NCBI GenBank assembly: GCA_003963005.1
Contig: RXJW01000018.1
Coordinates: 1 to 40,673, forward strand
DNA from: Burkholderiales bacterium
GTDB lineage: Bacteria > Pseudomonadota > Gammaproteobacteria > Burkholderiales > Burkholderiaceae_C
Direction of reading: 5' to 3'
DNA: 40,673 nucleotides
Shown one piece after another: positions 7,883-27,916 of the stretch; positions within the stretch are counted from its first letter, which is position 1; every line of letters begins with the position of its first letter. The notes under the pieces are model-generated. The model made no database searches. It saw only the letters and a list, made by a program, of their open reading frames with translations, and was not told the DNA's origin. Position numbers and translations under genes: made by a program.

Positions 7883-8305
7883 ATGCGCCGTCATTCCCTT
7901 GCCCGCGGCTTCACGCTGATCGAACTGCTGGTCGTCCTCGTCATCATTGGCGTGCTCGCTGCCCTGGTCGTGCCCAATGTGCTCGACCGCGCCGAAGACG
8001 CCCGCGTCACGGCTGCCCGCACCGACGTCAACAACCTGATGCAGGCGCTGAAGATGTACAAGCTGGACAACCAGCGCTACCCGAGCAGCGAGCAGGGCCT
8101 CGACGCGCTGGTTCACAAGCCCACCACCGGCACCCCGCCGCCGAACTGGAAGCCCTACCTCGAGAAACTGCCGAACGATCCCTGGGGCCACCCGTACCAG
8201 TACGCCAACCCCGGCGTGAAGGGCGAGGTGGATGTCTACAGCTTTGGTGCCGACGGCCGTACCGGCGGTGAGGGCCGTGACGCGGACATCGGCTCCTGGC
8301 AGTAA
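7883..8305 (+). CDS. gspG: Type II secretion major pseudopilin G
   Basis: A 140-residue major pseudopilin. Prepilin peptidase (GspO, not in the window) would cut RG|FTLIELLVVLVII, exposing Phe1 with the essential Glu5. Downstream are DVNNLMQALKMYKLDNQRYPS and the calcium-loop region with LPNDPWGHPYQYANPGVKGEVDVYS (partial), all standard for GspG. An upstream ATG at 7838 would add 15 residues, but 7883 gives the usual short basic leader MRRHSLARG. It is the first gene of an operon continuing to gspF. It forms the shaft of the pseudopilus that pushes substrates through the secretin. Confidence 0.95.
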   Translation: MRRHSLARGFTLIELLVVLVIIGVLAALVVPNVLDRAEDARVTAARTDVNNLMQALKMYKLDNQRYPSSEQGLDALVHKPTTGTPPPNWKPYLEKLPNDPWGHPYQYANPGVKGEVDVYSFGADGRTGGEGRDADIGSWQ

Positions 8306-10892: not shown

Positions 10893-10968
10893 TGCCCCGT
10901 ACACGAACCCGGCTACACCTGTTCACCGTCCTTCGGCGGGCCACCTCGGGAAGGTCACGCCCCCCTCC

Positions 10969-10974
10969 TAGAAT
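10969..10974 (+). promoter_or_regulatory. Possible internal -10 upstream of gspL
   Basis: The only sizeable gap inside the gsp operon (98 bases, 10893-10990) contains TAGAAT 16 bases before the gspL start. The same hexamer precedes the M23 peptidase gene. A good -35 is not seen. Confidence 0.3.
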
Positions 10975-10990
10975 GCGCCGCGCCTGACCT

Positions 10991-12229: not shown

Positions 12230-12756
12230 TGGCACGCCTGAATTCATCCGCCAACCCTGAAGGCCTGGCTGCCCAGTGGCAACAGCTCAAGACCCAGGCC
12301 CTGACGCAGTGGGAAGCCCTGGGCGAGCGCGAACGGCTGGCCTTGTCAGCCGTCGGCGTGCTGCTGGCGCTGCTGCTGGCCTGGAGCGTGCTGCTCGCCC
12401 CTGCGCTGCGCACGCTCAAGACCGCACCGGCCGAACTGGAAAAGCTCGACCTGCAGCTCCAGCAGATGCAGGCCCAGGCGCAGGAGGCCAAGGCCTTGCG
12501 CGCTGCACCGCCGGTGCCGCCGGCCCAGGCCCAGGCCGCGCTGACGGCCTCGGTGACCCACCTGGGCCCCGCGGCCCGGCTGAACCTGACCGGCGACCGC
12601 GCCGTCGTCACGCTCAATGGCGTGCCGCCCGAGATGCTGCAAGGCTGGCTCGGCGAAGTGCGCGCGGCAGCCCGCGCGCGGCCCGTCGAAGCGCAGCTCA
12701 CACGCGGGCCCAAGGGCTACGCCGGCACCCTCGTGCTGACCCTGGGGGGCAACTGA
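12229..12756 (+). CDS. gspM: Type II secretion inner-membrane protein M
   Basis: A 175-residue GspM with a cytoplasmic N-terminus, one membrane helix (about 38-58, LSAVGVLLALLLAWSVLLAP) and a periplasmic coiled coil plus a small ferredoxin-like domain. It begins on the last base of gspL and its stop overlaps gspN by one base. It stabilises GspL and contacts GspC and the pseudopilus. Confidence 0.92.
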   Translation: MARLNSSANPEGLAAQWQQLKTQALTQWEALGERERLALSAVGVLLALLLAWSVLLAPALRTLKTAPAELEKLDLQLQQMQAQAQEAKALRAAPPVPPAQAQAALTASVTHLGPAARLNLTGDRAVVTLNGVPPEMLQGWLGEVRAAARARPVEAQLTRGPKGYAGTLVLTLGGN

Positions 12757-13643
12757 TGGCCCTGTTCCGAAAGACCCCCCACACACCCGCCACCACCGTG
12801 GCTAGCGACTCCGTGCTCGGCAACGTGACCGCAGGTGGCCGTGCGGTGCGACACATCACCCCGAAGCGCTGGAGCGTTGCCGGCGCTCTGGTCGGCGCCA
12901 TCGCCGCACTCATTGCCTTCGCACCGGCAAGCTGGCTCGCTCGCGCTCTGGCGTCGGCCACCGACGAGCACCTGCTGATCGTCGACACCCGCGGCAGCAT
13001 TTGGAACGGCTCCGGCGTGCTCGTGCTGACCGGCGGTGCCGGCAGCCGCGATGCCTCGGCCCTGCCCGGCCGGCTGCACTGGCACATGGCGCTCAAGGGC
13101 ATGGGCTTCCAGCTGTCGGCGCGGCAGGACTGCTGCATCAACGGCGACCTGCTGCTGGGCATCAAGCCGGGCCTCGGGCGCATGGAAGTGAGCGTCGACA
13201 GCAAGGCCGACTGGCTGGCCCGCGTGCCCGCCGGCCTGCTCGCGGGGCTGGGCACGCCCTGGAACACGCTGCAGCTGGACGGCTCGCTGCGCCTGTCGGC
13301 GCGCGATTTGCGCCTGGAATCGGTGCAGGGCCGCTGGCGCCAGTTCGGCGAGTTGCAGCTCGACCTCGTCAACCTCTCGTCGCGCGTGTCGACCGTCGCG
13401 CCGCTGGGCAGCTACCGCTTCACCGTGACGGCCGATGCGGCCAACCCGGGCGTCAGCACGCTGCGCCTGTCCACGCTCGAAGGCGCGCTGCAACTCTCGG
13501 GCGTCGGCGTGCTCAACAGCGGTGGCAAGAGCCGTTTCACCGGCGAGGCCGGCGCCGCGCCGGGCCGCGAGGAAGCGCTGAACAATCTGCTGAACATCAT
13601 CGGACGCCGCAACGGCGCGCGCTCCGTCCTGACGATCGGATGA
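12756..13643 (+). CDS. gspN: Type II secretion protein N
   Basis: A 295-residue GspN, an accessory inner-membrane protein found in part of the GspC-containing systems. It has an N-terminal membrane helix at about residues 42-62 (VAGALVGAIAALIAFAPASW) and a beta-rich periplasmic domain with RGSIWNGSG, LPGRLHWHMAL and LEGALQLSGVG. It overlaps gspM by one base and gspD by four. Its exact role is not well settled. Confidence 0.9.
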   Translation: MALFRKTPHTPATTVASDSVLGNVTAGGRAVRHITPKRWSVAGALVGAIAALIAFAPASWLARALASATDEHLLIVDTRGSIWNGSGVLVLTGGAGSRDASALPGRLHWHMALKGMGFQLSARQDCCINGDLLLGIKPGLGRMEVSVDSKADWLARVPAGLLAGLGTPWNTLQLDGSLRLSARDLRLESVQGRWRQFGELQLDLVNLSSRVSTVAPLGSYRFTVTADAANPGVSTLRLSTLEGALQLSGVGVLNSGGKSRFTGEAGAAPGREEALNNLLNIIGRRNGARSVLTIG

Positions 13644-15835
13644 TCATGAATCTCCAACGCACTGCCACCTCCGCTGCTGCGATCACGGCCCTGCTGCTCG
13701 CAGCCGGCTCCGCGATGGCCCAGCCCGACAACGCCAACGTACAGCGTGGTCGCCCGGCAGGCCCGGCTGTCAAGGCCAGCTCGCCGGTCACGCTGAACTT
13801 CGTCAACGCCGACATCGAGGCCGTGACCCGCGCCATCGGCGTGATGCTGAACCGCCAGATCATCATCGACCCGCGCGTGAAGGGCACGGTCACGGTCTAC
13901 AGCGAGCAGCCGGTGTCGGTGGCCGAGGCCTACCGCAACTACCTCGCGGCGCTGCGCGGCCTGGGCTTCACGGTGGTGGAGGTGGCCGGCTTCCTGAAGG
14001 TGCTGCCCGAGCCCGACGCCAAGACCCAGGCCGGCTCGGTGGCCGTCGAGAACAGCAGCATCCGCGGCGACCAGATCATCACGCAGATCTTCCGCGTCCA
14101 GCACGAGAACGCCAACAACCTGGTGGCCGTGCTGCGCCCGCTGATCAGCCCGAACAACACGATCAACGCCAACCCCGGCAACAACAGCCTCGTCATCACC
14201 GACTACGCCGACAACCTGCAGCGCATCGGCAAGATCATCGCGGCGATGGACACGCCCGGGACGAGCGACATCGAGATCGTGCCGCTCAAGCATGCGGTCG
14301 CGGCCGACCTCGCACCGCTGGTGCAACGCCTGGCCGATGGCGGCAGCCCCGCCGGCGCGGCGGTGCCGGGCCAGAGCAGCAGCGCGGTCAACGTGCTGGT
14401 GGACCCGCGTTCCAACGGCCTGATCCTGCGCGCCAGCAACCCGGCCCGGCTGGCCGCCGTGCGCAGCATGGTCGACAAGCTCGACCAGCCCAGCACCGAC
14501 GGCGGCAACAACATCCGCGTCGTCTACCTCAAGAACGCGGACGCGACCAAGCTCGCCACGGTGCTGCGTGCGGCCTTCGGTGCGGCTGCGGCCGGGGGCA
14601 ACACGAGCAGTTCGTCGGGCAGCGGCGGCAACAGCCTGCTCACGGCCGGCACCAGCACCGGCAACGCGCAGTCGCTGACCGGCACGAACGCCAACGCGAC
14701 GAACAGCGGCGGCATGAACTCCGCCGCCGCCACGTCGCCGCTGAATCAGTCCGCGGGCCCGTCCACCGGCGGCTTCGTGCAAGCCGACCCGTCCACCAAC
14801 TCGCTGATCATCACCGCGCCAGAGCCGTTGTACCGCCAGGTGCGCGCGGTCATCGAGCAGCTCGACGCACGCCGCGCCCAGATCTACGTCGAGTCCCTGA
14901 TCGTCAAGATCGACAACACCAAGGCCGCGCAGTTCGGCGTGCAGTGGCAGAACGTGTTCGGCTCCAAGGGCGACAGCACGATCACCGCCGCGGGCACGAA
15001 CTTCGGCACCGGGCTGGCCAACATCATCAACGCGACCGGGGTCGTCGCCGGCGGCACGGCGGGCGTGCGCTCCGCCCTGACCAGCGGCGGCGCGGCGCCG
15101 ACCGGCCTGAACATCGGCTTCCTGAAGAAGTTCGGCAGCATCTACACGCTGGGTGCGGTGGCCAACTTCTTCGAGAGCCAGACCGGTGCGAACGTGCTGT
15201 CCACGCCCAACCTCGTCGCGCTGGACAACGAAGAGGCGCGCATCGTCATCGGCCAGAACGTGCCCTTCGTGACCGGTTCCTACGCCGGCGCCACCAGCAC
15301 CGGCGGCACGGTCAACCCGTTCACCACCGTCGACCGCAAGGACGTCGGCCTGACCCTCAAGGTCAAGAGCCAGATCGGCGAGGGCGGCACGGTGCGGATG
15401 GTGGTCTACCAGGAGAACTCGTCCGTCGTGCCGGGCTCCAACGGCACCACGGGCCCGACGCTGGACAAGAGCGCCATCGAGACCTCCATCGTCGTGGACG
15501 ACGGCGACGTCATCGTGCTGGGCGGCCTGCTCAAGGACGAATACCAGGACGGCGACGACAGCGTGCCCGGCCTGTCCAAGATCCCGGTCATCGGCAACCT
15601 CTTCACCAGCAAGAACCGCAAGCGCGTGAAGAGCAACCTGATGGTCTTCCTGCGCCCGGTCGTGCTGCGCACCGCCGAGAGCAGCAACCAGCTCACGCTG
15701 GACCGCTACGAGAGCATCCGCGCCGTGCAGCAAGGCGCCCAGCCCCAGAAGAGCATGATGCTGCCCGACACCGGCGCACCGGTGCTGCCCGACCCGCAGG
15801 CGGCCTCGCCCCGCAAGCCGCTGCCCCAGCAGTAA
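13640..15835 (+). CDS. gspD: Type II secretion secretin D
   Basis: A 731-residue outer-membrane secretin. A signal peptide ends at SAMAQ. N0 starts at VTLNFVNADIEAVTRAIG, N1-N3 follow, and the secretin core includes VLSTPNLVALDNEEARIVIGQ and the VPGLSKIPVIGNLF signature near the end. Inside N3 a loop of about 60 residues rich in Gly, Ser, Asn and Thr (near residues 313-372) enlarges the domain. The extreme C-terminus (Pro-rich, ending LPQQ) is short and no clear pilotin-binding S domain is seen. Start could be 13640 or 13646 (MIMN); the first overlaps the gspN stop. In many gsp operons D comes first; here it follows N. Confidence 0.95.
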   Translation: MIMNLQRTATSAAAITALLLAAGSAMAQPDNANVQRGRPAGPAVKASSPVTLNFVNADIEAVTRAIGVMLNRQIIIDPRVKGTVTVYSEQPVSVAEAYRNYLAALRGLGFTVVEVAGFLKVLPEPDAKTQAGSVAVENSSIRGDQIITQIFRVQHENANNLVAVLRPLISPNNTINANPGNNSLVITDYADNLQRIGKIIAAMDTPGTSDIEIVPLKHAVAADLAPLVQRLADGGSPAGAAVPGQSSSAVNVLVDPRSNGLILRASNPARLAAVRSMVDKLDQPSTDGGNNIRVVYLKNADATKLATVLRAAFGAAAAGGNTSSSSGSGGNSLLTAGTSTGNAQSLTGTNANATNSGGMNSAAATSPLNQSAGPSTGGFVQADPSTNSLIITAPEPLYRQVRAVIEQLDARRAQIYVESLIVKIDNTKAAQFGVQWQNVFGSKGDSTITAAGTNFGTGLANIINATGVVAGGTAGVRSALTSGGAAPTGLNIGFLKKFGSIYTLGAVANFFESQTGANVLSTPNLVALDNEEARIVIGQNVPFVTGSYAGATSTGGTVNPFTTVDRKDVGLTLKVKSQIGEGGTVRMVVYQENSSVVPGSNGTTGPTLDKSAIETSIVVDDGDVIVLGGLLKDEYQDGDDSVPGLSKIPVIGNLFTSKNRKRVKSNLMVFLRPVVLRTAESSNQLTLDRYESIRAVQQGAQPQKSMMLPDTGAPVLPDPQAASPRKPLPQQ

Positions 15836-15849
15836 GGCACCGCAGTCCC

Positions 15850-17274
15850 ATGGCCGCGACCCGCCACCCCCTGCCCTACGCCTTCGCCAAGGCGAACACC
15901 GTCCTGCTGGAGGACGACGGCAACACGCTCACCCTCTGGGCGCCGCCCGAGGTGGGCTGGGCCACGCTCTCCGAGGTGCAGCGCCAGTACGCCGTCGACC
16001 GGCTGGAATCCCTGGCCGCGCCCTCGCTGACGGAGCGCATCAACGCCGCCTACGCCGGCAGCGAGAGCAGTGCCGCGGTCGTGGTGGGCGAAGTGGAGAG
16101 CGCGGTGGACCTGTCCCGCATGATGCAGGACCTGCCCGCCGTGGAAGACCTGCTCGAAGCGGCCAACGACGCGCCGATCATCCGCATGCTCAACGCGCTG
16201 CTGACGCAGGCCGCGAAGGACGGCGCGAGCGACATCCACATCGAGCCCTACGAGCGCAGCAGCTCGGTGCGCTTCCGCGTGGACGGCACGCTGCGCGAGG
16301 TGGTGCAGCCCAACCGCGCGCTGCATGCCGCACTGATCTCGCGCCTGAAGATCATGGCCGAGCTCGACATCGCCGAGAAGCGCCTGCCTCAGGACGGCCG
16401 CATCTCGCTGCGCATCGGCGGCCGCGCGATCGACGTGCGGGTGTCGACGCTGCCGAGTGCCCACGGCGAGCGCGCGGTGCTGCGCCTGCTGGACAAGAGC
16501 GAATCCAAGTTCACGCTCGAAGGCCTGGGCATGGACGGCCAGGTGCTGTCGGCCTTCAAGCGCCTCGTGCAGCAGCCGCACGGCATCGTGCTGGTCACCG
16601 GCCCGACCGGCTCGGGCAAGACGACGTCGCTGTACGCTTCGCTGCAGACCGTGGACACCAGCACCACCAACGTGCTGACCGTGGAAGACCCGATCGAGTA
16701 CGAGCTGCCCGGCATCGGCCAGACGCAGGTCAACAGCAAGATCGACCTGACGTTTGCCAAGGCCCTGCGCGCCATCCTGCGCCAGGACCCGGACGTGATC
16801 ATGATCGGCGAAATCCGCGACTATGAAACCGCGCAGATCGCCATCCAGGCCTCGCTCACCGGCCACCTGGTGCTGGCCACGCTGCACACCAACGACGCGC
16901 CCAGCGCCGTCACCCGCCTGACCGACATGGGCGTGGAGCCCTTCCTGCTCAGCAGCTCGCTGCTCGGCGTGCTCGCCCAGCGCCTGGTGCGCCGCCTGTG
17001 CCCGGTGTGCAAGCGCCAGGATGGCGAAGGCCGCTGGCACCCCGTCGGCTGCGACGCCTGCGGCAGCACCGGCTACAAGGGCCGCACCGGCGTGTACGAA
17101 CTGATGGTGGCGGACGACGCCGTGCGCAGCCTGATCCACAACCGGGCCGCCGAAAGCGAACTGCTCGCCGCCGCACAGGCCGCCGGGCTGCGCTCGATGC
17201 GTGAGGACGGTGAGCGCCTGATCGCGGCCGGCATCACGTCGCTCGAAGAAGTGCTCCGCGTCACGCGCGAATAG
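15850..17274 (+). CDS. gspE: Type II secretion ATPase E
   Basis: A 474-residue hexameric ATPase that drives pseudopilus assembly. Walker A is GPTGSGKT (251-258). The Asp box (VLTVEDPIEYELPGI), Walker B (DPDVIMIGEIRD) and His box (HLVLATLHTNDA) follow. A zinc-binding tetracysteine is present as CPVC and CDAC. It begins 14 bases after gspD; the ATG at 15850 has no strong ribosome site. The cytoplasmic partner is GspL. Confidence 0.97.
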   Translation: MAATRHPLPYAFAKANTVLLEDDGNTLTLWAPPEVGWATLSEVQRQYAVDRLESLAAPSLTERINAAYAGSESSAAVVVGEVESAVDLSRMMQDLPAVEDLLEAANDAPIIRMLNALLTQAAKDGASDIHIEPYERSSSVRFRVDGTLREVVQPNRALHAALISRLKIMAELDIAEKRLPQDGRISLRIGGRAIDVRVSTLPSAHGERAVLRLLDKSESKFTLEGLGMDGQVLSAFKRLVQQPHGIVLVTGPTGSGKTTSLYASLQTVDTSTTNVLTVEDPIEYELPGIGQTQVNSKIDLTFAKALRAILRQDPDVIMIGEIRDYETAQIAIQASLTGHLVLATLHTNDAPSAVTRLTDMGVEPFLLSSSLLGVLAQRLVRRLCPVCKRQDGEGRWHPVGCDACGSTGYKGRTGVYELMVADDAVRSLIHNRAAESELLAAAQAAGLRSMREDGERLIAAGITSLEEVLRVTRE

Positions 17275-17285
17275 GCCGACGCACC

Positions 17286-18497
17286 GTGCCTGCCTACAAG
17301 TACGAAGCGCTCACCGACAGCGGCCGCCAGACCAGCGGCCTGATCGAGGCCGACAACCCGCGGGCCGCGCGCGCCGCCGTGCGCGCGCTGGGGCTCACGC
17401 CGCTGGGCATCGAGCAGGTGCAGCAGCATGGGGCCCAGGAAGGCAGCCGCTTCACGCGCCGCGTGTTCAGCCCGACCGCACTGGCCGTCTGGACGCGCCA
17501 GCTCGCCGGCCTCGTCGGGTCGGGCCTGCCGATCGAACGTGCGTTGACGGCGCTTGCCGACGAGAGCGAAGACACCCGCCAGCGCGAGCTGATCAGCCAG
17601 CTCAAGGCCGAGGTGAACGCCGGCTCGGCCTTCGCCCGCGCACTGGCCTCGGCACCGCGCGAGTTCGACGACGTGTACCGCGGCGTGGTGGCCGCCGGCG
17701 AGCAGAGCGGCGCGCTCGGGCAGGTGCTGGAAAAGCTCGCCGACGATCTCGAAGAGCGCCAGGACCTCAAGGCCAAGGTCGTGGGCGCGATGGCCTACCC
17801 GGCGATCGTCTCGCTGATCTCGGTGTTCATCATCATCTTCCTGGTGACCTACGTCGTGCCGCAGATCGCGACCGTGTTCACGAGCTCCAAGCGCACGCTG
17901 CCGGCGCTCACCGTGGGCATGCTGGCCATCAGCGACTTCGTGCGCAACTGGGGCTGGGCCATGCTCGGCGCGCTGGTCGCGGGCGGTGTCGCCTTGCGCT
18001 ATGCGCTCAAGGCACCCGCATTCCGGCTGCGCTTCGATGCCGCCCTGCTCACGCTGCCGCTGCTCGGCCGGCTCACGCGCGGCTACAACGCGGCGCGCTT
18101 CGCCGGCACGCTGGCGATGCTGGCCGCTGCCGGCGTGCCGATCCTGAAGGCGCTGCAGGCGGCGGCCGAGACGCTGTCCAACCGCGCGATGCAGGCCGAC
18201 GCACTGGACGCGCTCGTCATGGTGCGCGAAGGCGCACCGCTGGGCTCGGCGCTGGCGGGCAAGAAGCGCTTTCCGGGCATCCTGGCCATGTTCGCGCGGC
18301 TGGGTGAGCAGACCGGCGAGCTGCCCGACATGCTCGGCCGCGCCGCGCGCCAGCTCGGCACCGAGGTGCAGCGCCGCTCGATGGCCGCGGCCACGCTGCT
18401 GGAGCCGCTGCTCATCGTCGCGATGGGCGCGGTGGTGCTGTTGATCGTGCTGGCGGTGTTGCTGCCGATCATTCAGCTCAACACCTGGGTGAAATAG
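17286..18497 (+). CDS. gspF: Type II secretion inner-membrane platform protein F
   Basis: A 403-residue polytopic platform protein, starting with GTG (MPAYKYEALTDSGRQTSG). It has two repeated cytoplasmic GspF domains (FTRQLAGLV-type and FAGTLAMLAAAGVP-type) and three membrane helices: near YPAIVSLISVFIIIFLVTYV, near WAMLGALVAGGVALRYAL, and at the end, LLIVAMGAVVLLIVLAVLLP. It is the last gene of the gsp operon, 11 bases after gspE. The hairpins from 18509 on may end the transcript. Confidence 0.95.
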   Translation: MPAYKYEALTDSGRQTSGLIEADNPRAARAAVRALGLTPLGIEQVQQHGAQEGSRFTRRVFSPTALAVWTRQLAGLVGSGLPIERALTALADESEDTRQRELISQLKAEVNAGSAFARALASAPREFDDVYRGVVAAGEQSGALGQVLEKLADDLEERQDLKAKVVGAMAYPAIVSLISVFIIIFLVTYVVPQIATVFTSSKRTLPALTVGMLAISDFVRNWGWAMLGALVAGGVALRYALKAPAFRLRFDAALLTLPLLGRLTRGYNAARFAGTLAMLAAAGVPILKALQAAAETLSNRAMQADALDALVMVREGAPLGSALAGKKRFPGILAMFARLGEQTGELPDMLGRAARQLGTEVQRRSMAAATLLEPLLIVAMGAVVLLIVLAVLLPIIQLNTWVK

Positions 18498-19829: not shown

Positions 19830-19841
19830 CCGCCCGCCGGG

Positions 19842-21728
19842 TCAGCGGGCCAGCAGCCCCTTCAGCATCACCGCCACGATCGACAGCACGAACACGCCCA
19901 GGCCGAAGCGCCCCCAACCCAGGTCGCGCTTCTTCAAGGACTGGCTGTGCCAGATCAGCGCCAGGAAGAGGAAGGCGGCGCTGTGCAGCACGAGCGCCAT
20001 GAACGCATAGCCGAACACCTGCAGGCCATAACGCTTCCACGGCACGGGCTGCTCGGCGACGGGTGCCGGTCGCGCCACCGGCCTCGCCCCCGGCGTTGCC
20101 GTCGCCGGCTGGGCTGATGGCGCCACCGCGGGCTTGCCGGAGCGCTGGGCGCGTTCCGCATTGAGGCGCGCCTGCCGCGCCGCCTGCATCTGGCCCGCCG
20201 TCAGCGCCAGTTGCGGCTCGGGTGCGGGTACCACCTCCCACCACGGCCCACTGCGGCGCGCGGGCGCCACGCCCTTCACGGCCTGGGCGCGGAAGGCGTC
20301 CGGCCGCGGCGCGTGGCTCGACGCCCCGGGCAGCGCGAGGGCCTGCTTCAGCAGGGGCTGCCCCTGCGCCGCATTGACCATGTGCACGAAGCGCGCGTAG
20401 CCGACCAGCACGTCGCGCGTGGCCGCCTCGCCCTGCCAGGTGGCGGCCTGAACGCCCTGCCGACCCGCGCGGTGCAGGGCTGCGCGGAGCTGGCGCCGCG
20501 CCGCGCGCGACACCGAGGGCTTGTCGTTGACCACCACGCCCGTCACCTCCTGGCGGGCGCCGCGGCGCATGACGCGCTGCTTGTCGGGGTGGGGCGTGAA
20601 GCCCTCGTCGCGCAGCACGTGATGCACCTGGCGCAGCAGGCGGCCCACGCGCTGGGCCGCGTCGCCCGCGGCCGAGAAGCTCAGGTCGTCGGCATAGCGG
20701 GTGTAGGAGAAGCCAAGCTTCAAGGCCAGGCCCTGCAGGCGACGGTCCAGCTTGCGGCACAGAAGGTTGGTCAGCATCGGGCTGGTCGGCGCCCCCTGGG
20801 GCAGCACCCGCTCGCGGCCCTTGCCGCCGACGAAGAAGCGCTCGCCGTCCACGCTGAGCTCGTCGCACACGTTCTCGCTGCACAGCAGGGCCAGCAGGCT
20901 GGCCACCGCATCGCCATAGCCCAGCCCGCGGAACACACCCTTGATGCGCGGGAAATGGATGCTCGGGAAGAAGTCCTTCAGGTCGAGGTTGATGACCACG
21001 TCCTGCCCGCAATGCGGGGCGGCGTTGCTGACGATGCTGCGCCCCGGCAGGAAGCCGTGGGCTGCCGCATGGCTGGGCACCTTGGCCAGCAGGTTGTCGA
21101 GCACCCAATACTGCGCCCGCTTCAGGCGCGGCATCGGCGACGAGATGGTGCGCACACCGCCTGTCTTCTTGGGCAGTTGGAAGCGCCGGTAGTGGGTGGT
21201 GCGCGCCACTTCGCGGTGGAAGCACAGGAAGCGCAGTTCCGGCAGGCTCAGGCCCATGGCCTGCGCCAGCTCCGACGGCGTGGTCAGGGCCGGCAGGCCC
21301 GCAGCCGCCAGGCGCGCCTTGACGGCCTCGGGGTCGACCTCGGCCCCCAGGCCGCCGGACACACCGGGGCCGAGGTAGCCGGCCTCCATCTTGCGGCGCT
21401 CATGCCAGCGCAGCGCGCGCTCGTAGCGCTCGCGCTCGCGGGCCTGGGCGCGGGCCTCGCGCTGCTCGCGGGCCTGGGCCATGCGCTCGCGGCGCATCGC
21501 CTGCAGCGCGGCCTGCGGGTCGCCCTTGACACGCAACTCCTCCTGCAGGGCCGACAGCGCCTGTTGAAGCTCGGCCTCGCGTTCCAGCAGGGCGGCTTGG
21601 ATGACCGGCTGGCCAGCCTCGCCGGGCCAGTAGCCCAGGCGGCGCATCTCGGCCAGCACGACATCTTCCTTGCTGCTGGCCGCAATGCGGGCGAGCAGTT
21701 CGGCGCGGGTGGGCATGCGCTCGCTCAT
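19842..21728 (-). CDS. Retron reverse transcriptase with N-terminal coiled coil and C-terminal membrane tail
   Basis: A 628-residue protein. Residues about 45-110 are highly charged and likely coiled coil. The RT core covers about 170-460. NAAPH (235-239) is the retron region-X NAxxH motif. Motif A is NLDLKDFFPSI, with catalytic Asp249. Motif B is LPQGAPTSPML (309-319). YADD is at 345-348, with Asp347 and Asp348 catalytic. VTG (395-397) is the retron region-Y motif. After a Pro/Ala-rich linker (about 500-560), two hydrophobic helices follow at about 569-592 and 608-626, which is not part of the minimal retron RT. The msr-msd RNA lies just upstream on the same strand, then the SWIM and HEAT genes. 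RT primes from a guanosine 2'-OH in the msr and copies the msd into branched msDNA. Start ATG at 21728 follows GCGGAGG. It is not a group II intron or diversity-generating RT, as no maturase, HNH domain or template repeat is seen. Confidence 0.93.
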   Translation of the reverse strand: MSERMPTRAELLARIAASSKEDVVLAEMRRLGYWPGEAGQPVIQAALLEREAELQQALSALQEELRVKGDPQAALQAMRRERMAQAREQREARAQARERERYERALRWHERRKMEAGYLGPGVSGGLGAEVDPEAVKARLAAAGLPALTTPSELAQAMGLSLPELRFLCFHREVARTTHYRRFQLPKKTGGVRTISSPMPRLKRAQYWVLDNLLAKVPSHAAAHGFLPGRSIVSNAAPHCGQDVVINLDLKDFFPSIHFPRIKGVFRGLGYGDAVASLLALLCSENVCDELSVDGERFFVGGKGRERVLPQGAPTSPMLTNLLCRKLDRRLQGLALKLGFSYTRYADDLSFSAAGDAAQRVGRLLRQVHHVLRDEGFTPHPDKQRVMRRGARQEVTGVVVNDKPSVSRAARRQLRAALHRAGRQGVQAATWQGEAATRDVLVGYARFVHMVNAAQGQPLLKQALALPGASSHAPRPDAFRAQAVKGVAPARRSGPWWEVVPAPEPQLALTAGQMQAARQARLNAERAQRSGKPAVAPSAQPATATPGARPVARPAPVAEQPVPWKRYGLQVFGYAFMALVLHSAAFLFLALIWHSQSLKKRDLGWGRFGLGVFVLSIVAVMLKGLLAR

Positions 21729-21775
21729 GCGCGACCTCCGCGCAGGACGGCCCGCTCAGGCCGGGGAGTCAAGGT

Positions 21776-21787
21776 GGGTGCAGTGCG
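21776..21787. repeat. Retron a2 inverted repeat
   Basis: GGGTGCAGTGCG on the plus strand, the exact reverse complement of the a1 copy at 21993-22004. On the RNA this is the 3' end of the msr-msd and pairs with the 5' end. Confidence 0.88.
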
Positions 21788-21819
21788 CTCCTCATCGAAG
21801 AGCCTGCAAGGCTTGAAGG

Positions 21820-21933
21820 ACGGGAGCTGTCCACTCGACGCCGGGCGCCACCCGTCGCGCTCATGCGTTCGGAGCGAACCCCATCGGCATGGCGCGACGG
21901 GTGGCAGCCCGGCACAGTGAAGACAGCTCCCGT
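21820..21933 (-). ncRNA. msd hairpin (template of the msDNA)
   Basis: Nested stems are seen. The outer 12 bp pair 21820-21831 with 21922-21933 (ACGGGAGCTGTC and its complement). An inner 7 bp pair 21840-21846 with 21907-21913. A central 13 bp pair 21848-21860 with 21892-21904. Then CATGC/GCATG (21862-21866, 21887-21891) and GTTCG/CGAAC (21867-21871, 21875-21879) close a 3-base loop. Bulges lie at 21832-21839/21914-21921 and 21880-21886. A long msd stem of this kind is what retron RTs copy. Confidence 0.87.
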
Positions 21934-21992
21934 GGTGCGTAGAACGGCAGTTCACAAGGGCGGCGAAACACCGCCCGGATTGCAAGAGCCCA

Positions 21993-22004
21993 CGCACTGC
22001 ACCC
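21993..22004. repeat. Retron a1 inverted repeat
   Basis: CGCACTGCACCC on the plus strand; as RNA (minus strand) it is the 5' end of the msr and pairs perfectly over 12 nt with a2 at 21776-21787. Confidence 0.88.
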
Positions 22005-22010
22005 GGCAGC

Positions 22011-22016
22011 AGTGTA
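22011..22016 (-). promoter_or_regulatory. Candidate -10 of the retron RNA
   Basis: TACACT on the minus strand, in GGCTACACT, ends six bases before a1, so transcription would start exactly on the first G of a1 at 22004. The -35 region would overlap the end of the SWIM gene and is poor. The RNA may also come from read-through of the upstream operon. Confidence 0.45.
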
Positions 22017-22032
22017 GCCACAGTTCTCGTCA

Positions 22033-23715
22033 TCACGCCCCCCTGTCGGCGTTGTCGTCCAGCCGCGGCTGGGCCAGCTGGCGCAGGGCCAGCATGTGCG
22101 CGCAGGGGCCGCGTCGGAGCTTGTTCTGGCTGTAGAAATTGCAGCTGCACTGGGCGTCCTGCAATTGCTGGTCGGCATTCAGCGTCAGGCGGGGCGTGAA
22201 CGCGCGGTCGCGCTCCTTGACCGTGCCCTCGATGAGCGTGCGAGCCCCCTCCCGGCGCAGCCCACCCAGGCGCACACCGCGGGCATGCACCAGCGCGAGC
22301 GCTGCGGCCTCCTCGGGGCTGGCAAACCGCAAGGTCTCCAGCGGCAGCGGCTCGCGCGCTAGTTCACGCCAGGCGTAGCGCCCGGTAGGCAGGTCGAAGA
22401 TCGCGCGGCCGGCCTGCACCCACAGCGTCATCGCGGCGTCGACATCCGCCTGCGCCAGCCCGGTGCGCTGGGCCAGTTCAGCGGGCGTCGCGAGCCAGCA
22501 CGACTGCAGGGCCTGGGCCACGGCCAGCTTCGCGGGCTCACTGACCTCGTGCCGCGCCTGCAGCAGGTCGAAGCGGCCAGCGGCCGACCAGTCGTTGGCC
22601 GTCCAGCCCGACAGGCCGAGCGTGACCGTCACGTCGCCCATCTCCACCACCCAGAAGCTCGGCATGCCCGAGCCCAGCAGGTGCACGCGCACGCGGGTGG
22701 CCAGCGCGATCAGCCGCTCCAGCGTCAGCAGGCGCCGCCGCCCCCACAGCCGCACGCTGCGCGGCTCGGACAGCGGCGCGCCGACGATTGCACTGCGCCG
22801 TGCCGTCAGCTCGATGTTCCAGGGCTCCAGCACCATGCGCGCGGGCTGCCCCGGCGCCAGTTCGAACCGCAGCGAGCGGGGCCCGGCGCGCTCCTTGCGC
22901 TGCCGCAGCAGGCTGCACAGGTTGTGCAGGTCCATCGGATGCAGCTCCAGCACGGTAGCCGGCAGCGTCATCGCGCTGGACACCTGCAGGAAGCCCCGCA
23001 CCCAGCTGTCGGGCAGGTCGATCTTCTCCTCGCGGAAGGCCGGGTCGTCGGCGGTGCGGACCGTGAAGCCGGACGGGTCCACCGCGAAGCGCGTCGCCTT
23101 GTAGTCGCGGATCTTCTGGAACTGCTCGAACAGGCTGGCGGAGTAGTCGATGTTGGTCGTGCCGCAGGCCATCTCGCCGACCCGGTCGAACACATCGTGC
23201 CGGATGCTGACGGCGCAGTAGCTGGACTCGTCCTGGCTGAAGGCCTCGAACAGCAGGCGCTCCGGGTGCACGGTGATGACCGGGTCGAGCACGAACCAGG
23301 CGTCGCGGTTGGCCTGGTAGAGCCAATCGAAGTACCGCTTGCGGGCCTTGAAGAAGGGGGCGAGCAGCGCCGCCTTGCGGTCGCGCAGCTGGCTGAGTTC
23401 GGCGCGGATGTCGGCCGCCTGCGCCTTCAGCGACTGGGCGCGGGCCATGAAGCTGGCCAGAAGCTGTGCCTCGTTGGCCTGCAGCCAGGCCTGGTAGGCC
23501 GCGGGGTCGCGGCCGCGCACGCGCAGGTCGCTGACCACCACGGAATGCAGGGCCGACAAGGCCTCGCGGAACACCAGATGCGCATGCGAGTCGCGCCGCA
23601 GCACGCCCTCGAAATGCGTGGGCGGGCGCAGCGTGTCCGGCGCCAGGCTGAACGCCTGCTCGGTGGCACGGTCATCCACCGTGCTCTCGCCGTAGTACTT
23701 GTAGCGGAATTGCAT
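22033..23715 (-). CDS. Winged-helix/SWIM zinc-finger protein, retron-associated
   Basis: A 560-residue protein. Residues 85-125 look like coiled coil. A winged-helix-like segment lies at about 395-450 (AQRTGLAQADVDAAMTLWV and GRYAWREL). The C-terminus holds a SWIM zinc finger, C523-x-C525-x12-C538-x-H540, in CSCNFYSQNKLRRGPCAH. SWIM fingers bind nucleic acid or protein. It begins three bases after the stop of the HEAT protein gene with almost no ribosome site, suggesting coupled translation, and ends 28 bases before the retron RNA. This matches the WHSWIM component described for type XIII retrons, as I recall the classification. Its action on the target cell or phage is unknown. Confidence 0.85.
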   Translation of the reverse strand: MQFRYKYYGESTVDDRATEQAFSLAPDTLRPPTHFEGVLRRDSHAHLVFREALSALHSVVVSDLRVRGRDPAAYQAWLQANEAQLLASFMARAQSLKAQAADIRAELSQLRDRKAALLAPFFKARKRYFDWLYQANRDAWFVLDPVITVHPERLLFEAFSQDESSYCAVSIRHDVFDRVGEMACGTTNIDYSASLFEQFQKIRDYKATRFAVDPSGFTVRTADDPAFREEKIDLPDSWVRGFLQVSSAMTLPATVLELHPMDLHNLCSLLRQRKERAGPRSLRFELAPGQPARMVLEPWNIELTARRSAIVGAPLSEPRSVRLWGRRRLLTLERLIALATRVRVHLLGSGMPSFWVVEMGDVTVTLGLSGWTANDWSAAGRFDLLQARHEVSEPAKLAVAQALQSCWLATPAELAQRTGLAQADVDAAMTLWVQAGRAIFDLPTGRYAWRELAREPLPLETLRFASPEEAAALALVHARGVRLGGLRREGARTLIEGTVKERDRAFTPRLTLNADQQLQDAQCSCNFYSQNKLRRGPCAHMLALRQLAQPRLDDNADRGA

Positions 23716-23718
23716 GGT

Positions 23719-26700
23719 TCAGCGAGCGTGAACGCCGGGCTGCTGCCAGGCCAGGAAGGGCAGCGGCAGGGCTGGGTGGCGGCGAGCGATGTCGCGCAGG
23801 CCGGCGATGTACTGGGGCTTGTCGGTCAGGCTGGCGGTGACGACCTGGCGGGCGAAGATCTCCGCCACCACGGCCGCCGTCTCGGGCGCCTGCACCTGCG
23901 CGCGCAGGAATTCGGTGACGCGGGTCTTGGCCACCCGACCACGGTGGACCTGGCTGAGCACGGTGAGCAGGTAGGGCGTCAGCGAGCGCAGGCGCTGTGC
24001 GAGCACCACCGGGTCGTCGGTGGGCAGCTCCAGCAGCCACTGCGTGACGAACAGCTGCACCTGCGGGCTCGGGTGCTGGCTCAGGCGCGTCAAGCACAGC
24101 GCGGCATCGGCCGCACTCATGCGCCGCACGAGCCGGCTGCGGCCTAGCGCCTGCACCCAGGCCTGCGGATGGTCGACCCAGGTGATCAGCAGCTCCACGC
24201 TGAGCGCGTCGTCCGCCAGCCGGTCACCGAACAGGTCTTGCGCGTAGGCCCGCGCGTCGTCGAAGCCCGCGTCGGCCAGCGGCAGCAGCTCGGCGGCGTC
24301 ATCCGGCGTGGGCTGCGCCGGCAGCCGGGCGTCGAGCGCCTGCATGGCCCAGCGGCGCACGCCCACGTCGGCATGCCGGGCCAGCGTGGCGAGCTGGCGC
24401 AGGCTGTAGTCACCCGCCGACCGCGCCTGCAGCGCCCAGGCGCCGTAGCGCTGCGCCCCGCCGCTGCGCGCCTGCAGCGCACGCCACACGCCGGATGGGT
24501 CCCGTGCGGGGGCGAAGGCCGCGAGATCCTGCGTCAGCCACTGCAGCAGGTCGTCATGCAGACCGTCGCCGGATTCGGCCTGGAACAGCGCCGCATGCAG
24601 CCGGCCGGCCAGCGTCTGGCCCAGGGCGGTGTCGCCGCGCGCCAGGCGCATCAGGGCCGGGCCGACCGCCGCGCGCACGCTCGCAGCGGGCTGTGTGGCC
24701 AGCGTGACGAGCAGCTCCACCTGCGCGGCCAGCACGTCGTCAGGCAGCGCGGCCAGCAAGCGGGCACCGCAGGCCCGCAGCGCGTCATCCGTCGCCCCCA
24801 GCAGCCGCGTGAACACGGACGCCGGCACCACGGCCAACCCGGCGGGGTGCAGCAGCAGCCAGCTCACGGCAAAGCTGACGACCGGTGCGGCCGCCTGCTC
24901 GAGCAAGGGCATCAAGGCCCCGAGCCCTTGCCAGCCCGCCGCTGTGCCGGCCAGCGGCCCCTGCAGCAACTGCTCGGCCAGGGCGGCGCCCGCGGTCAGG
25001 CCGGCATCGTCCGCGTCCGCGGCCAGCAGCGCTGCCAGCAGCTCGTGCAGCAGCGGCTCGGCGGGCGACAACAGCGCCAGCCCCTGCCCCTGCCGCCGGG
25101 CTCGCGAATCGACGGAGAGCAGCAGCGCGACGACCAGCGCCGGATGCCGGGCGAAGGCAGCCGGGTCACCCGCCAGGTGCAGCAGGGCATGGTCGCGCGC
25201 CGGCGCATGGGCGCTGGTGGCCATCAGCAGCAGCCAGGGCACCTGGTCGGCGGTGTCGGTCAGCGCCGCCAGCCGTTCCCGCGCCACGCGCAAGCCCAGG
25301 GCCGCCGCGACTTCATACGGGCTGCGCAGCAGGCTGCCGATGACACCCGGGGGCTGCTGAGCAAGGAAACCGGCATGGTCGTCGAGCGCGCGCGCCACGA
25401 CCGCCTGCACCAGCGCGCTGCGGCTGTGCAGCGCCAGGCGCAGCAAGGCCTCGGGGTGCGCGTCCCACATGGCCTGCAGCGCCTCGGGCCGCTGCGTGAA
25501 CGGCCGCGAGGTGTCCAGCGGCTGGTGGGTCCACCAGCGCCGCGCCCGCGCGCTCGTGTGCAGGCCCGGCCAACGCGCCAGCAGCAGGCGAGGCACGAGC
25601 AGCCAGCCCGCGCCGCGGTGGTGCAGCCGGGTCGCGCGTTCATAGCGGCCGTGCACCAGCATCCAGCGCAGCTCCTCGCGGGGCGACTCCTGCTCGTCGT
25701 CCACGAGCCCGAGCAGCAGGGACACGGCCAGTTCGGGCGCGAAGGGGTGCTGCAGCGCCGCCAGGCGGCGCAGCTGGCGCCAGGCCCTCAAGCGGAGGTA
25801 GTCGCGCGTCTTGCTGCCGAAGGCATGGGCCGGGGCCCGTGCACCGCCCACGGCACGCTGCAGCCAGCCGCCCGTGGTGGGCGAGCGATAGCGCCGGCTG
25901 CCCGCCGGCCCCACCGCGGCCGTGGCGTTCTCGAACCTGGCGTGCAGCAGGCCCAGCACCTCGCTGTCACGCCGCATCTCGGCGGCCTTGTAAACGTAGC
26001 GAATGCCCTGGAAATGCGGTGCCTGCAGCGGCAGCACGCGCAGCAGGCCCAGCAGGGTCGCTCGGGCCTCGGGGCGCACGAGGGCGATGTCGTACCAATC
26101 GGTGAGCAGCGGGGCCCAGGTCGTGGCGCGCAGCGGCAAGGCGCTCTCGAGGCGCGACAGCAGCGCCGCTGCCGGCAGCTCGCTGGCCAGTTCCTCCTGC
26201 CAGTCGGGCAGCAGCCCGGCGGCGTGCTCGGCCTGCTGGGCGGGCGTCGCGAGCATCAGCCCGGCCTGCCGGGCGGCCCGGCAGGTGGCCGGGCTGCGCC
26301 CCTGCAGCGACAGCATCTGCATGGCCTCGCGCGCGCCGGGGTCGCCCAGCCGGCCGATGGCCACGGCCAGGCACAGGTCGAGCAGGTCATCGCCGGTGCC
26401 CAGCAGCTCGACCAGGCGCGGCACCAACCCGCGCAGCGCCTGCTGTGCGGCCCCCGCCGACTGTGCGTCGCTGCACTCCGCCACGCGCCAGGCGGCCCGT
26501 GCACGACGGGCCGGCGCCTCCAGCTTCCAGCGCGCCGGTTGAAAGCGCGCCACCAGCGCCGCGACCGACGCCGGCACCGACCCAGCCGCTGACGAGGCCT
26601 GCGCCGGCACGGCAGCGGCCGGCGCCGCGGGCTCGGGCGCCCAGTCCGCCAGCTCCGGGAAGCCCTGTTGCGACAACAGCCCGTCACCCGCCGACAGACG

Positions 26701-26901
26701 GCGGCGCAGGTACTCGACGGCACGGCGACGCGCTTCGGCCTCGTCGCAGGGGCTTGGCGTCAGCGTGGACTCACGCTCGCCGTCGCGCAGGGTCACGACG
26801 CAGCGCGAGCCGGCGGCGGTGTCCAGGGCCACGAGCTCCACGACACGGCGTTGCTCGGGGTGGCGCGATCGCAGCAGCGTCACGCGAGCGAGTTTTTGCA
26901 T
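23719..26901 (-). CDS. Large HEAT/ARM-type repeat protein, retron-associated
   Basis: A 1060-residue alpha-helical protein, rich in Leu, Ala and Arg, built from many paired-helix units, such as RWAMQALDARLP, QVQLFVTQWLLELP and SVRAAVGPALMRLARGD. An N-terminal small domain (about 1-80) is beta-like and is followed by a Pro/Ala linker near 90-115. No enzyme motif was found. The ATG at 26901 is chosen because GGGAGG lies six bases before it; an upstream in-frame ATG at 26922 lacks this. It is the first gene of HEAT - SWIM - retron RNA - RT on the minus strand. The ARM/HEAT + WHSWIM pair is the accessory set of type XIII retrons. Such scaffolds often sense or hold partners, but that is inference here. 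Confidence 0.83.
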   Translation of the reverse strand: MQKLARVTLLRSRHPEQRRVVELVALDTAAGSRCVVTLRDGERESTLTPSPCDEAEARRRAVEYLRRRLSAGDGLLSQQGFPELADWAPEPAAPAAAVPAQASSAAGSVPASVAALVARFQPARWKLEAPARRARAAWRVAECSDAQSAGAAQQALRGLVPRLVELLGTGDDLLDLCLAVAIGRLGDPGAREAMQMLSLQGRSPATCRAARQAGLMLATPAQQAEHAAGLLPDWQEELASELPAAALLSRLESALPLRATTWAPLLTDWYDIALVRPEARATLLGLLRVLPLQAPHFQGIRYVYKAAEMRRDSEVLGLLHARFENATAAVGPAGSRRYRSPTTGGWLQRAVGGARAPAHAFGSKTRDYLRLRAWRQLRRLAALQHPFAPELAVSLLLGLVDDEQESPREELRWMLVHGRYERATRLHHRGAGWLLVPRLLLARWPGLHTSARARRWWTHQPLDTSRPFTQRPEALQAMWDAHPEALLRLALHSRSALVQAVVARALDDHAGFLAQQPPGVIGSLLRSPYEVAAALGLRVARERLAALTDTADQVPWLLLMATSAHAPARDHALLHLAGDPAAFARHPALVVALLLSVDSRARRQGQGLALLSPAEPLLHELLAALLAADADDAGLTAGAALAEQLLQGPLAGTAAGWQGLGALMPLLEQAAAPVVSFAVSWLLLHPAGLAVVPASVFTRLLGATDDALRACGARLLAALPDDVLAAQVELLVTLATQPAASVRAAVGPALMRLARGDTALGQTLAGRLHAALFQAESGDGLHDDLLQWLTQDLAAFAPARDPSGVWRALQARSGGAQRYGAWALQARSAGDYSLRQLATLARHADVGVRRWAMQALDARLPAQPTPDDAAELLPLADAGFDDARAYAQDLFGDRLADDALSVELLITWVDHPQAWVQALGRSRLVRRMSAADAALCLTRLSQHPSPQVQLFVTQWLLELPTDDPVVLAQRLRSLTPYLLTVLSQVHRGRVAKTRVTEFLRAQVQAPETAAVVAEIFARQVVTASLTDKPQYIAGLRDIARRHPALPLPFLAWQQPGVHAR

Positions 26902-27006
26902 CCAGAGCCTCCCGCAGCTCATTCATCTGGTGTGCCAGCCCGGCACCGCCAAGACCGGCGCCGACAGGCCGACGATGGTAGTCGCCTCCGGCCCCGGTTC
27001 GGCCCC

Positions 27007-27012
27007 TAACAT
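27007..27012 (+). promoter_or_regulatory. Possible -10 for a leaderless 5'-nucleotidase mRNA
   Basis: TAACAT ends seven bases before the ATG at 27020, so the transcript would start at or next to the start codon. No good -35 is visible in the 118-base gap shared with the divergent HEAT gene. Confidence 0.25.
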
Positions 27013-27019
27013 CGGCCTC

Positions 27020-27916
27020 ATGCCAGCCACCCTGAACGGTCAACTCGTCGTTGCCATCTCGTCCCGCGCGCTGTTCGATTTCGAGGCCGAGAACCAGGTC
27101 TTCGAAGCGGCCGACGACCGCGCCTACATGGCCCTGCAGCAGCAGCGGCTGGACGAACCCGCGCCCCCGGGCGTCGCCTTCTCGCTGGTGCAGAAGCTGC
27201 TGGCCTTCAATGCCGGCGGCACGCCGCAGGTGGAGGTGGTGGTGGTGTCGCGCAACGACCCGATCTCGGGCATGCGGGTGTTCCGCTCGGCCAAGCACTA
27301 CGGCCTGACCATCGAGCGTGGGGTGTTCACCCGCGGCGCCTCACCGTGGCGCTATCTGCGGCCGCTGTCGGCGCAGCTCTTCCTGTCGGCCAACGAGGCC
27401 GACGTGCGCCAGGCCCTGCTGGCGGGTGTGGCCGCGGCGCGGGTGATGCCGCAGGCGGCCCGGGCCTCGGCCGCGCATCCGGGCGAGCTGCGCATCGCCT
27501 TCGACGGCGATGCGGTGCTGTTCTCCGACGAAGCCGAGCAGGTGTTCCAACGCGACGGCCTGGCCGCCTTCCAGGCCCACGAGACCTCGCGCGCCCACCA
27601 GCCGCTGCCCGCCGGCCCGTTCAAGCCGGTGCTCGAAGCCCTGCACCGGCTGCAGCACAGCCCAGCCGGCGGCATGCGGGTGCGCACGGCCCTCGTCACG
27701 GCGCGCAGCGCGCCGGCGCACGAGCGCGCCATCCGCACGCTGATGGACTGGCAGATCGAAGTCGATGAAGCGATGTTCCTCGGCGGCCTGGCCAAGGGCG
27801 AGTTCCTGCGGGAGTTCGAACCGGATTTCTTCTTCGACGACCAGGCCGGGCACATCGCCAGCGCCGCGGCACACGTGCCGGCCGGCCATGTGGCCTTGGG
27901 TGTAGCCGCCGGCTGA
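27020..27916 (+). CDS. 5'-nucleotidase (cytosolic 5'-nucleotidase I family)
   Basis: A 298-residue protein of the family to which cytosolic 5'-nucleotidase I belongs, dephosphorylating nucleoside monophosphates. The first part has LVVAISSRALFDFEAEN, where the usual catalytic DxD is replaced by SRALFDF as in this family. VVVVSRNDP and FTRGASP follow. A haloacid-dehalogenase-like segment, LRIAFDGDAVLFSDEAE, contains DGDAV. LVTARSAPAHERAI and a late FFFDDQAGH complete the site. The ATG at 27020 opens the homologous region; earlier in-frame codons lack support. It is divergent from the retron-linked HEAT gene and converges with the HupE-like gene. Confidence 0.88.
   Translation: MPATLNGQLVVAISSRALFDFEAENQVFEAADDRAYMALQQQRLDEPAPPGVAFSLVQKLLAFNAGGTPQVEVVVVSRNDPISGMRVFRSAKHYGLTIERGVFTRGASPWRYLRPLSAQLFLSANEADVRQALLAGVAAARVMPQAARASAAHPGELRIAFDGDAVLFSDEAEQVFQRDGLAAFQAHETSRAHQPLPAGPFKPVLEALHRLQHSPAGGMRVRTALVTARSAPAHERAIRTLMDWQIEVDEAMFLGGLAKGEFLREFEPDFFFDDQAGHIASAAAHVPAGHVALGVAAG

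What the first reader, a model, noticed from the sequence alone, without database searches (positions are those of the whole stretch)
19842..22004. Complete retron: msr-msd RNA directly upstream of a retron RT
The gap before the RT is fully explained by an msr-msd RNA. It has 12-nt perfect a1/a2 complements (21993-22004, 21776-21787), an msr hairpin with a UGUUUCG loop, and a 114-nt msd with stems of 12, 7, 13, 5 and 5 bp. The RT carries NAAPH, YADD and VTG. Structure, order and spacing all agree.
Basis: partly seen in the sequence, partly recalled or inferred. Interest (0 to 1): 0.93.

Follow-up and report, generated by a model that had tools for sequence, protein, structure and literature searches.

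The report
Retron with a clamp-shaped partner
This is a complete bacterial retron: a reverse transcriptase gene beside the structured RNA that it likely copies into DNA, plus two partner genes, one of whose proteins is predicted to fold like the sliding clamps that hold DNA polymerases on DNA, so that a likely phage-defence unit carries an unexpected part.

Summary
The RT (19842-21728, minus strand) carries NAAPH, YADD and VTG, matches PADLOC's RT_XIII best (2.6e-172), and groups with matches to retron RT profiles, away from group II intron RTs. The RNA (21776-22004) is real: 44 of 66 pairs covary in 25 mostly Burkholderiales sequences, and a model built from them finds it in 53 of 75 type XIII-like loci outside the model.

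Two upstream genes (SWIM_XIII, WGR_XIII) belong to the unit, and empty sites in two same-genus genomes show WGR-SWIM-RNA-RT as a discrete ~7.2-kb cassette. The locus is a type XIII retron, a catalogued kind.

msDNA, phage defence and the effector's action are untested. My searches showed no clamp or membrane-tailed RT reported for retrons, but the founding type XIII paper was not held.

The parts
19832..27001 (-). Whole cassette, about 7.17 kb (ends approximate), absent from two same-genus genomes
   Evidence: BLASTN against empty sites: in L120 window 19831 aligns to 3111 and window 27002 to 3113; in L119 19831 to 1667 and 27019 to 1695 (sequences)
19842..21728 (-). Retron reverse transcriptase, type XIII (628 aa)
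   Evidence: PADLOC RT_XIII 2.6e-172, protein residues 2-475; Pfam RVT_1 6.7e-21; motifs NAAPH, YADD, VTG
19845..20021 (-). C-terminal tail of the RT with two predicted transmembrane helices (about residues 570-628), outside the RT_XIII profile match
   Evidence: hydropathy only; alignment A1
20238..20243 (-). WW pair (W496 W497) in the linker before the hydrophobic tail
   Evidence: invariant in 22 of 22 near relatives; a WW pair in this stretch in 32 of 42 complete alpha/beta/gammaproteobacterial RTs, L037 left out
21776..22004 (-). msr-msd RNA, whole
   Evidence: fold z -9.6; 44 of 66 pairs with changes on both sides in 25 sequences; the one match of model R1 at E <= 0.001 in the genome, 150 of 5910 first-look candidates scored
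21993..22004 (-). a1 repeat
   Evidence: 12-nt perfect complement of a2; 11 of 12 a1/a2 pairs of the consensus have changes on both sides
21983..21983 (-). Predicted branching guanosine (G of CUUGCAA); inferred by position, not tested
   Evidence: GGCTCTTGCAA invariant in the 25 rows of A2, TTGC invariant in the 27 rows of A6, where the G follows a CCUU/AAGG helix; assignment by analogy with known retrons, from recall
21958..21976 (-). msr hairpin GGGCGG-UGUUUCG-CCGCCC
   Evidence: helix 4 of the consensus, 99.5% of cells paired
21820..21933 (-). msd region: long hairpin, predicted template of the msDNA
   Evidence: helices 6-8 of the consensus; helix 7 has 19 of 21 pairs with changes on both sides
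21801..21813 (-). Small hairpin AGCCU-UGC-AGGCU before a2
   Evidence: helix 9, 97.6% of cells paired
21776..21787 (-). a2 repeat
22033..23715 (-). SWIM_XIII protein (560 aa): predicted sliding-clamp fold, then a winged-helix-like part and a SWIM zinc finger C523xC525...C538xH540
   Evidence: PADLOC SWIM_XIII 8.1e-215; Pfam SWIM 0.0012, just under its cut-off; these Cys/His invariant in 52 of 52
22597..23616 (-). Residues 34-373 of that protein, predicted PCNA-like fold
23719..26922 (-). WGR_XIII protein (1067 aa): a head named WGR by PADLOC, then a predicted long HEAT/ARM solenoid
   Evidence: PADLOC WGR_XIII 3.7e-257; model pLDDT 86.9, mostly helical repeats from residue ~118; ARM/HEAT matches

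Best explanation
This is a complete type XIII retron: its RT is predicted to copy the msd part of the adjacent RNA into msDNA, and the RT-msDNA complex would hold two partner proteins, a SWIM protein predicted to be sliding-clamp-shaped and a predicted WGR/HEAT-repeat protein, in an off state until a phage disturbs it. Shown by sequence: the RT with retron motifs, the covarying msr-msd RNA between the SWIM and RT genes, the two partner genes, and their presence together as one cassette. Predicted: the clamp fold, the WGR/HEAT fold, and the membrane anchor at the RT's C-terminus. Inferred from other retrons: priming from a branching G (proposed G at 21983), msDNA formation, phage triggering and growth arrest. 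My commitment on the last step, at low confidence (about 0.3): no catalytic domain was found in either partner, so the released clamp-fold/WGR pair likely acts by binding DNA and blocking replication rather than as an enzymatic toxin, with the RT-msDNA sensor held at the inner membrane.
For: RT_XIII, SWIM_XIII and WGR_XIII are the best matches. RT groups with matches to retron RT profiles, 100/100 apart from 6 group II intron RTs; 12 of 14 PDB sequence relatives are named retron, the other two RNA-directed DNA polymerase. RNA: z -9.6; 44 of 66 pairs with changes on both sides, 97.6% of cells paired, 0 of 500 shuffles as high on all five measures; in 27 sequences not in A2, 24 of 39 pairs, 92.9% of cells; model R1 finds the RNA at E < 1e-7 in 53 of 75 type XIII-like loci outside A2; among 7 RT loci found with the RT_III-A profile and 4 group II intron loci the best match is 8.1 bits, E 0.6. 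Where both partner genes were found, the order WGR-SWIM-RT on one strand holds in 58 of 63 loci (window and L002-L081). Empty sites. Clamp fold; HEAT/ARM solenoid; hydrophobic tail in 29 of 31 complete betaproteobacterial RTs. No catalytic domain in Pfam at E <= 10 or NCBIfam at E <= 0.01 for the two partners. General retron model: PMC13158370, first of two parts read.
Against: No expression, msDNA or phage data. The clamp assignment rests on one predicted model; neither Pfam (E <= 10) nor PDB sequences (E <= 1) show clamp similarity. The membrane tail rests on hydropathy; it was found in 0 of 55 complete RTs assigned to none of the alpha-, beta- and gammaproteobacteria and is missing in 4 of 7 gammaproteobacterial ones, so it cannot be essential to the type. 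Type XIII is one side of a branch only weakly (42/83; 39% of bootstrap trees). A2 rows were picked for having an a1/a2 repeat, so the pairing of those two helices is favoured by the choice. In A6 one covariation measure did not beat shuffles (further pair types, 211 of 500), and MAFFT did not align a1/a2 there. In 22 of 75 loci outside A2 no RNA was found at E < 1e-7. Model R1 also gives antisense matches to the palindromic hairpin (to 7.2e-9). 5 of 63 loci have another gene order, and in 16 of 81 no SWIM gene was found in the stretch held.
Confidence: 0.82

Rival explanations
1. The clamp-fold SWIM protein is not an effector but a helper of the RT: it holds the RT or msDNA as a processivity factor or sensor, and the WGR/HEAT protein is the effector. 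The WWKLF-like C-terminal peptides of many RTs would dock on it like clamp-binding peptides.
For: Clamps normally serve polymerases, and the gene sits beside a polymerase gene. RTs end in WWKLF/WWKFW/WKLW-type peptides in 5 of 13 Myxococcota, 8 of 10 Bacteroidota and 1 of 1 Acidobacteriota; a WW pair stands in the linker of 32 of 42 alpha/beta/gammaproteobacterial RTs. Likeness to clamp-binding peptides is from recall.
Against: Cyanobacterial RTs lack such a tail (0 of 17), although several of these systems keep the SWIM gene. 10 of 42 proteobacterial RTs lack the WW pair. No complex was modelled.
Confidence: 0.3
2. The hydrophobic RT tail is not a membrane anchor but a helical hairpin that packs on a partner protein.
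For: Only hydropathy was used; the tail is poorly conserved in sequence; the WWKLF-type tails elsewhere could bind protein or membrane equally well.
Against: The window's tail has two hydrophobic stretches (Kyte-Doolittle 2.4 each over 17 residues), and at least one such stretch recurs in 29 of 31 complete betaproteobacterial RTs despite divergence.
Confidence: 0.25
3. The RNA is a transcription attenuator or terminator of the operon, not an msr-msd.
For: Long stable hairpins can end transcription; the RNA lies inside the gene row, 28 nt behind the SWIM stop codon.
Against: Closed by covarying a1/a2 repeats about 230 nt apart, with UUGC, msr hairpin and msd hairpin in the same order, found across phyla near this RT; in cyanobacteria L041, L042 and L058 it keeps its place right behind SWIM, 1-2.3 kb from the RT.
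Confidence: 0.03
4. The cassette is intact by sequence but serves something other than phage defence.
For: No phage test exists for this locus; the site lies between ordinary chromosomal genes.
Against: Patchy distribution (RT_XIII at E <= 1e-120 in 2 of 20 same-genus, 16 of 399 same-family and 7 of 399 same-order genomes, own included) and presence as a unit fit a defence cassette; retrons as a class act in phage defence (PMC12548924 passages).
Confidence: 0.1

Closest known systems
Type XIII retron (PADLOC RT_XIII, SWIM_XIII, WGR_XIII; that the type is from Mestre et al. 2020 is recalled, paper not held)
   Same: All three proteins match the type's own profiles best; RNA present.
   Different: The RT has about 150 residues beyond the profile match, ending in a predicted membrane hairpin; clamp fold of the SWIM protein not stated in anything I could read.
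Retron Ec86 (Eco1, type II-A)
   Same: Nearest RT of solved structure by sequence (E 2.8e-54); same a1-msr-msd-a2 layout (recalled).
   Different: Ec86 has a nucleoside deoxyribosyltransferase-like effector and a short RT without tail (recalled); here two partners without a recognised enzyme domain.
Retron Eco8 (RT, msDNA, OLD nuclease)
   Same: Working model in which msDNA holds an effector until a phage protein binds it (PMC13158370).
   Different: Effector is an OLD nuclease; here no nuclease domain was found.
PCNA / 9-1-1 / DnaN sliding clamps
   Same: Predicted fold of residues 34-373.
   Different: No recognisable sequence similarity, a helical insertion at about 71-135, and winged-helix-like and SWIM parts fused behind; ring formation unknown.

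Membership tests
Retron | RT with retron motifs NAxxH, YxDD, VTG | tested here: met
Retron | RT falls with retron RTs in a tree, not with group II introns | tested here: met
   32 retron-like rows 100/100 apart from 6 group II rows; the 12 other retron rows are matches to PADLOC retron RT profiles; no DGR or Abi RTs were included
Retron | msr-msd RNA closed by a1/a2 repeats next to the RT | tested here: met
Retron | Branching guanosine that primes reverse transcription | tested here: inconclusive
   G of UUGC invariant in 25 A2 and 27 A6 rows, behind a CCUU/AAGG helix in A6; chemistry untested
Retron | msDNA is made | not testable with these tools
   needs nucleic acid from the strain
Type XIII retron | RT_XIII, SWIM_XIII and WGR_XIII proteins together | tested here: met
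   2.6e-172, 8.1e-215, 3.7e-257
Type XIII retron | Gene order WGR-SWIM-RNA-RT as in relatives | tested here: met
   window follows the order found in 58 of 63 loci with both partners; L035, L049, L062 and L078 read RT-WGR-SWIM, L029 SWIM-RT-WGR
Type XIII retron | Protects against phage | not testable with these tools
   needs plaque assays
Sliding clamp (PCNA/DnaN) | Two-domain clamp fold | tested here: met
   predicted model only:
Sliding clamp (PCNA/DnaN) | Recognisable clamp sequence family | tested here: not met
   Pfam at E <= 10 gives SWIM only; PDB sequences at E <= 1 give no clamp. So it is described as clamp-shaped, not filed as a clamp
Sliding clamp (PCNA/DnaN) | Forms a ring around DNA | not testable with these tools
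   no assembly was modelled

The most novel reading that the evidence does not exclude
Type XIII retrons carry their own PCNA-like clamp: a bacterial defence polymerase that writes msDNA works with a dedicated clamp-WGR module, and in Proteobacteria the RT has become membrane-anchored, so that phage sensing by msDNA happens at the membrane and release of the clamp stops replication. In other phyla the same system carries tandem, diverged msr-msd RNAs, giving several msDNAs per RT.
Probability: 0.35. Interest if true: 0.88.

Novelty: new variant of a known kind. Interest (0 to 1): 0.62.

Why it matters
Well-studied retron effectors such as those of Ec86 and Eco8 are enzymes (NAD-consuming enzyme, nuclease; PMC13158370). 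No enzyme was recognised in type XIII; a clamp-shaped partner would be a new way for a retron to act and would make the effector question directly testable. A membrane-anchored RT would say where msDNA sensing takes place. Loci with two or three diverged RNAs suggest retrons that make more than one msDNA, of interest for both defence and genome editing. The window's own locus gives a compact cassette with natural empty-site controls.

Tried and rejected

Literature. Mestre et al. 2020 is not held. Searches (papers found; I judged from listings): 'retron'+'type XIII' 1, not on the type from its title and abstract; 'retron'+'SWIM' 50, 20 listed; two of retron/msDNA/WGR 60, 30 listed; retron+transmembrane+reverse transcriptase+ncRNA 18, 15 listed; retron+phage defense+membrane+msDNA+effector 17, 15 listed; retron+sliding clamp 7, all listed, none on this from titles; three of PCNA-like/bacterial/anti-phage/sliding clamp 37, 20 listed; retron+msr-msd+tandem 0; three of retron/defense systems/PADLOC/Retron XIII 51, 10 listed. 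Passages sought for XIII, SWIM and WGR: none in PMC12548924, PMC12262390 and PMC8934634. PADLOC uses msr-msd covariance models (PMC9252829 passages), which I could not run; one for type XIII may exist. So 'not in print' is not claimed.

Full report
Observation. The RNA folds 9.6 standard deviations below dinucleotide shuffles, with a1/a2 closed.

The RT. PADLOC's RT_XIII is the best of 50 matching families (572 bits; next RT_other at 341). NCBIfam's group II intron model scores 55 bits against a cut-off of 300. Of 14 PDB sequence relatives at E <= 1e-10, Ec86 first, 12 are named retron and two only RNA-directed DNA polymerase. A tree of 38 RTs (20 type XIII-like, 12 matches to the RT_XIII or RT_III-A profiles from other loci, two of them found twice, and 6 group II) separates retron-like from group II rows at 100/100; type XIII forms one side of a branch, weakly supported (42/83, 39% of 200 bootstrap trees), and two of the 12 have long branches.

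The RNA. 24 related RNAs, mostly from Burkholderiales and chosen because an a1/a2-like repeat had been found, were aligned with the window (A2). RNAalifold gives 66 pairs, 44 with changes on both sides. Counting pairs: 97.6% of cells paired; no shuffle of 500 reaches the observed value on any of five measures; sliding partners by 1-3 columns drops pairing to 33-49%. 11 of the 12 a1/a2 pairs and 19 of 21 pairs of the long msd helix have changes on both sides. A covariance model from A2 (R1) was run on 87 sources: outside A2 it hits 53 of 75 type XIII-like loci at E < 1e-7 and none of four more distant RT loci (L088-L091). In a second run all 19 further type XIII loci (17 of them in A2) were hit; 7 RT loci found with the RT_III-A profile (two the same genes as L088 and L089) and 4 group II loci gave nothing better than 8.1 bits (E 0.6); antisense matches to the palindromic hairpin occur (to 7.2e-9). 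In the whole genome of the window it has one match at E <= 0.001, this RNA. Model E-values are rough. 27 of the 53 RNAs, picked by hand across alpha- and gammaproteobacteria, Myxococcota, Bacteroidota, Cyanobacteria and others, were aligned anew by MAFFT (A6; some had been located by R1). A fresh prediction on A6 again gives the msr hairpin, the msd stem base and a CCUU/AAGG helix beside a1/a2: 24 of 39 pairs with changes on both sides, 92.9% of cells paired; four of five measures exceed all 500 shuffles, the fifth (further pair types) does not (211 of 500). a1/a2 themselves were not aligned there.

The rest of the unit. Directly upstream lie SWIM_XIII (22033-23715) and WGR_XIII (23719-26922), each best against the type's own profile. 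Among the window and L002-L081, 63 of 81 show both partners, and 58 of these 63 have the order WGR-SWIM-RT on one strand; four read RT-WGR-SWIM and one SWIM-RT-WGR; several of the rest are cut contigs. Two same-genus genomes hold the empty site: in L120 window 19831 and 27002 align to positions two bases apart, in L119 19831 and 27019 to positions 28 bases apart. So the unit is one piece of about 7.2 kb. RT_XIII at E <= 1e-120 occurs in 2 of 20 same-genus genomes, 16 of 399 of the family and 7 of 399 of the order, own genome included.

A membrane tail. The match to the RT_XIII profile ends at residue 475. Beyond it the window's RT has a linker with a WW pair and two hydrophobic stretches. WW is invariant in the 22 near relatives of A1 and present in this stretch in 32 of 42 complete alpha/beta/gammaproteobacterial RTs (L037 left out). 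With a Kyte-Doolittle test (at least one 17-residue stretch of 1.8 or more) on 102 loci, 4 cut ones set aside, a hydrophobic stretch is found in 29 of 31 beta-, 4 of 5 alpha- and 3 of 7 gammaproteobacterial RTs and 0 of 55 others; groups were assigned by hand from record titles or kinship. Outside these, 5 of 13 Myxococcota, 8 of 10 Bacteroidota, 1 of 1 Acidobacteriota and one unassigned proteobacterium end in a short basic-aromatic tail such as KKKWWKLF. Cyanobacterial RTs (17) have neither.

How it likely works. As in studied retrons (PMC13158370, first of two parts read), RT and msDNA would hold the partners inactive, and a phage product acting on the msDNA would release them. No enzyme domain was recognised in either partner, so I propose that the released clamp-fold/WGR pair acts on DNA directly. 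That last step is inference at about 0.3; the main rival is that the clamp serves the RT.

Novelty. The type is catalogued, so this is not a new kind; I rate it a new variant because of the membrane-tailed RT and the clamp-shaped partner, neither of which the type's profiles describe. These, and the tandem RNAs in relatives, were not found in the searches listed under Tried and rejected, but the founding paper could not be read and PADLOC's RNA models could not be run.

Noticed in passing
L018:7264-7497 and 7622-7857; L022:2420-2656 and 2761-2996; L029:2665-2901 and 4115-4351; L032:7462-7690 and 7715-7947; L034:7219-7439, 7448-7683, 7698-7950; L038:7314-7552 and 7661-7900; L067:7477-7710 and 7728-7959: Seven of 87 searched sources carry two or three msr-msd RNAs for one RT; copies are 67-83% identical and by eye differ most in a1/a2 and the msd stem while keeping the hairpin; the first L034 copy shows no closing a1/a2 stem within the match. 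From recall, retrons are described with one RNA.
   Followed up: partly
L041:5772-6008, L042:6759-7007, L058:5426-5672, L048:2630-2865: In cyanobacteria L041, L042 and L058 the RNA starts within 10 nt of the SWIM stop while 1-2.3 kb separates it from the RT; in L048 it lies about 5 kb from the RT and no SWIM gene was detected in the stretch held.
   Followed up: no
L035, L037: The WGR genes of these type XIII loci lie in several open pieces, as if broken. Described only.
   Followed up: no
window 4340-4402 (+): Rfam RF02278, Betaproteobacteria toxic small RNA, 61.1 bits (cut-off 50), at or just before the start of a threonine dehydratase gene.
   Followed up: no
window 26765-27916 (+): The gene beside the cassette matches PADLOC's phage defence candidate PDC-S08 (1e-130), but DNA of this gene is present at both empty sites, so it is not part of the cassette.
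   Followed up: partly
window 9324-18497 (+): Type II secretion genes (proteins K, L, D, E and F by Pfam) on the left flank.
   Followed up: no
window 21990-21986 and 21801-21813: The 5' GGCUC behind a1 could also pair with the GAGCC of the 3' hairpin in many of the betaproteobacterial RNAs, a possible switch between two folds (read by eye from A2; in the window itself the partner is AAGCC).
   Followed up: no
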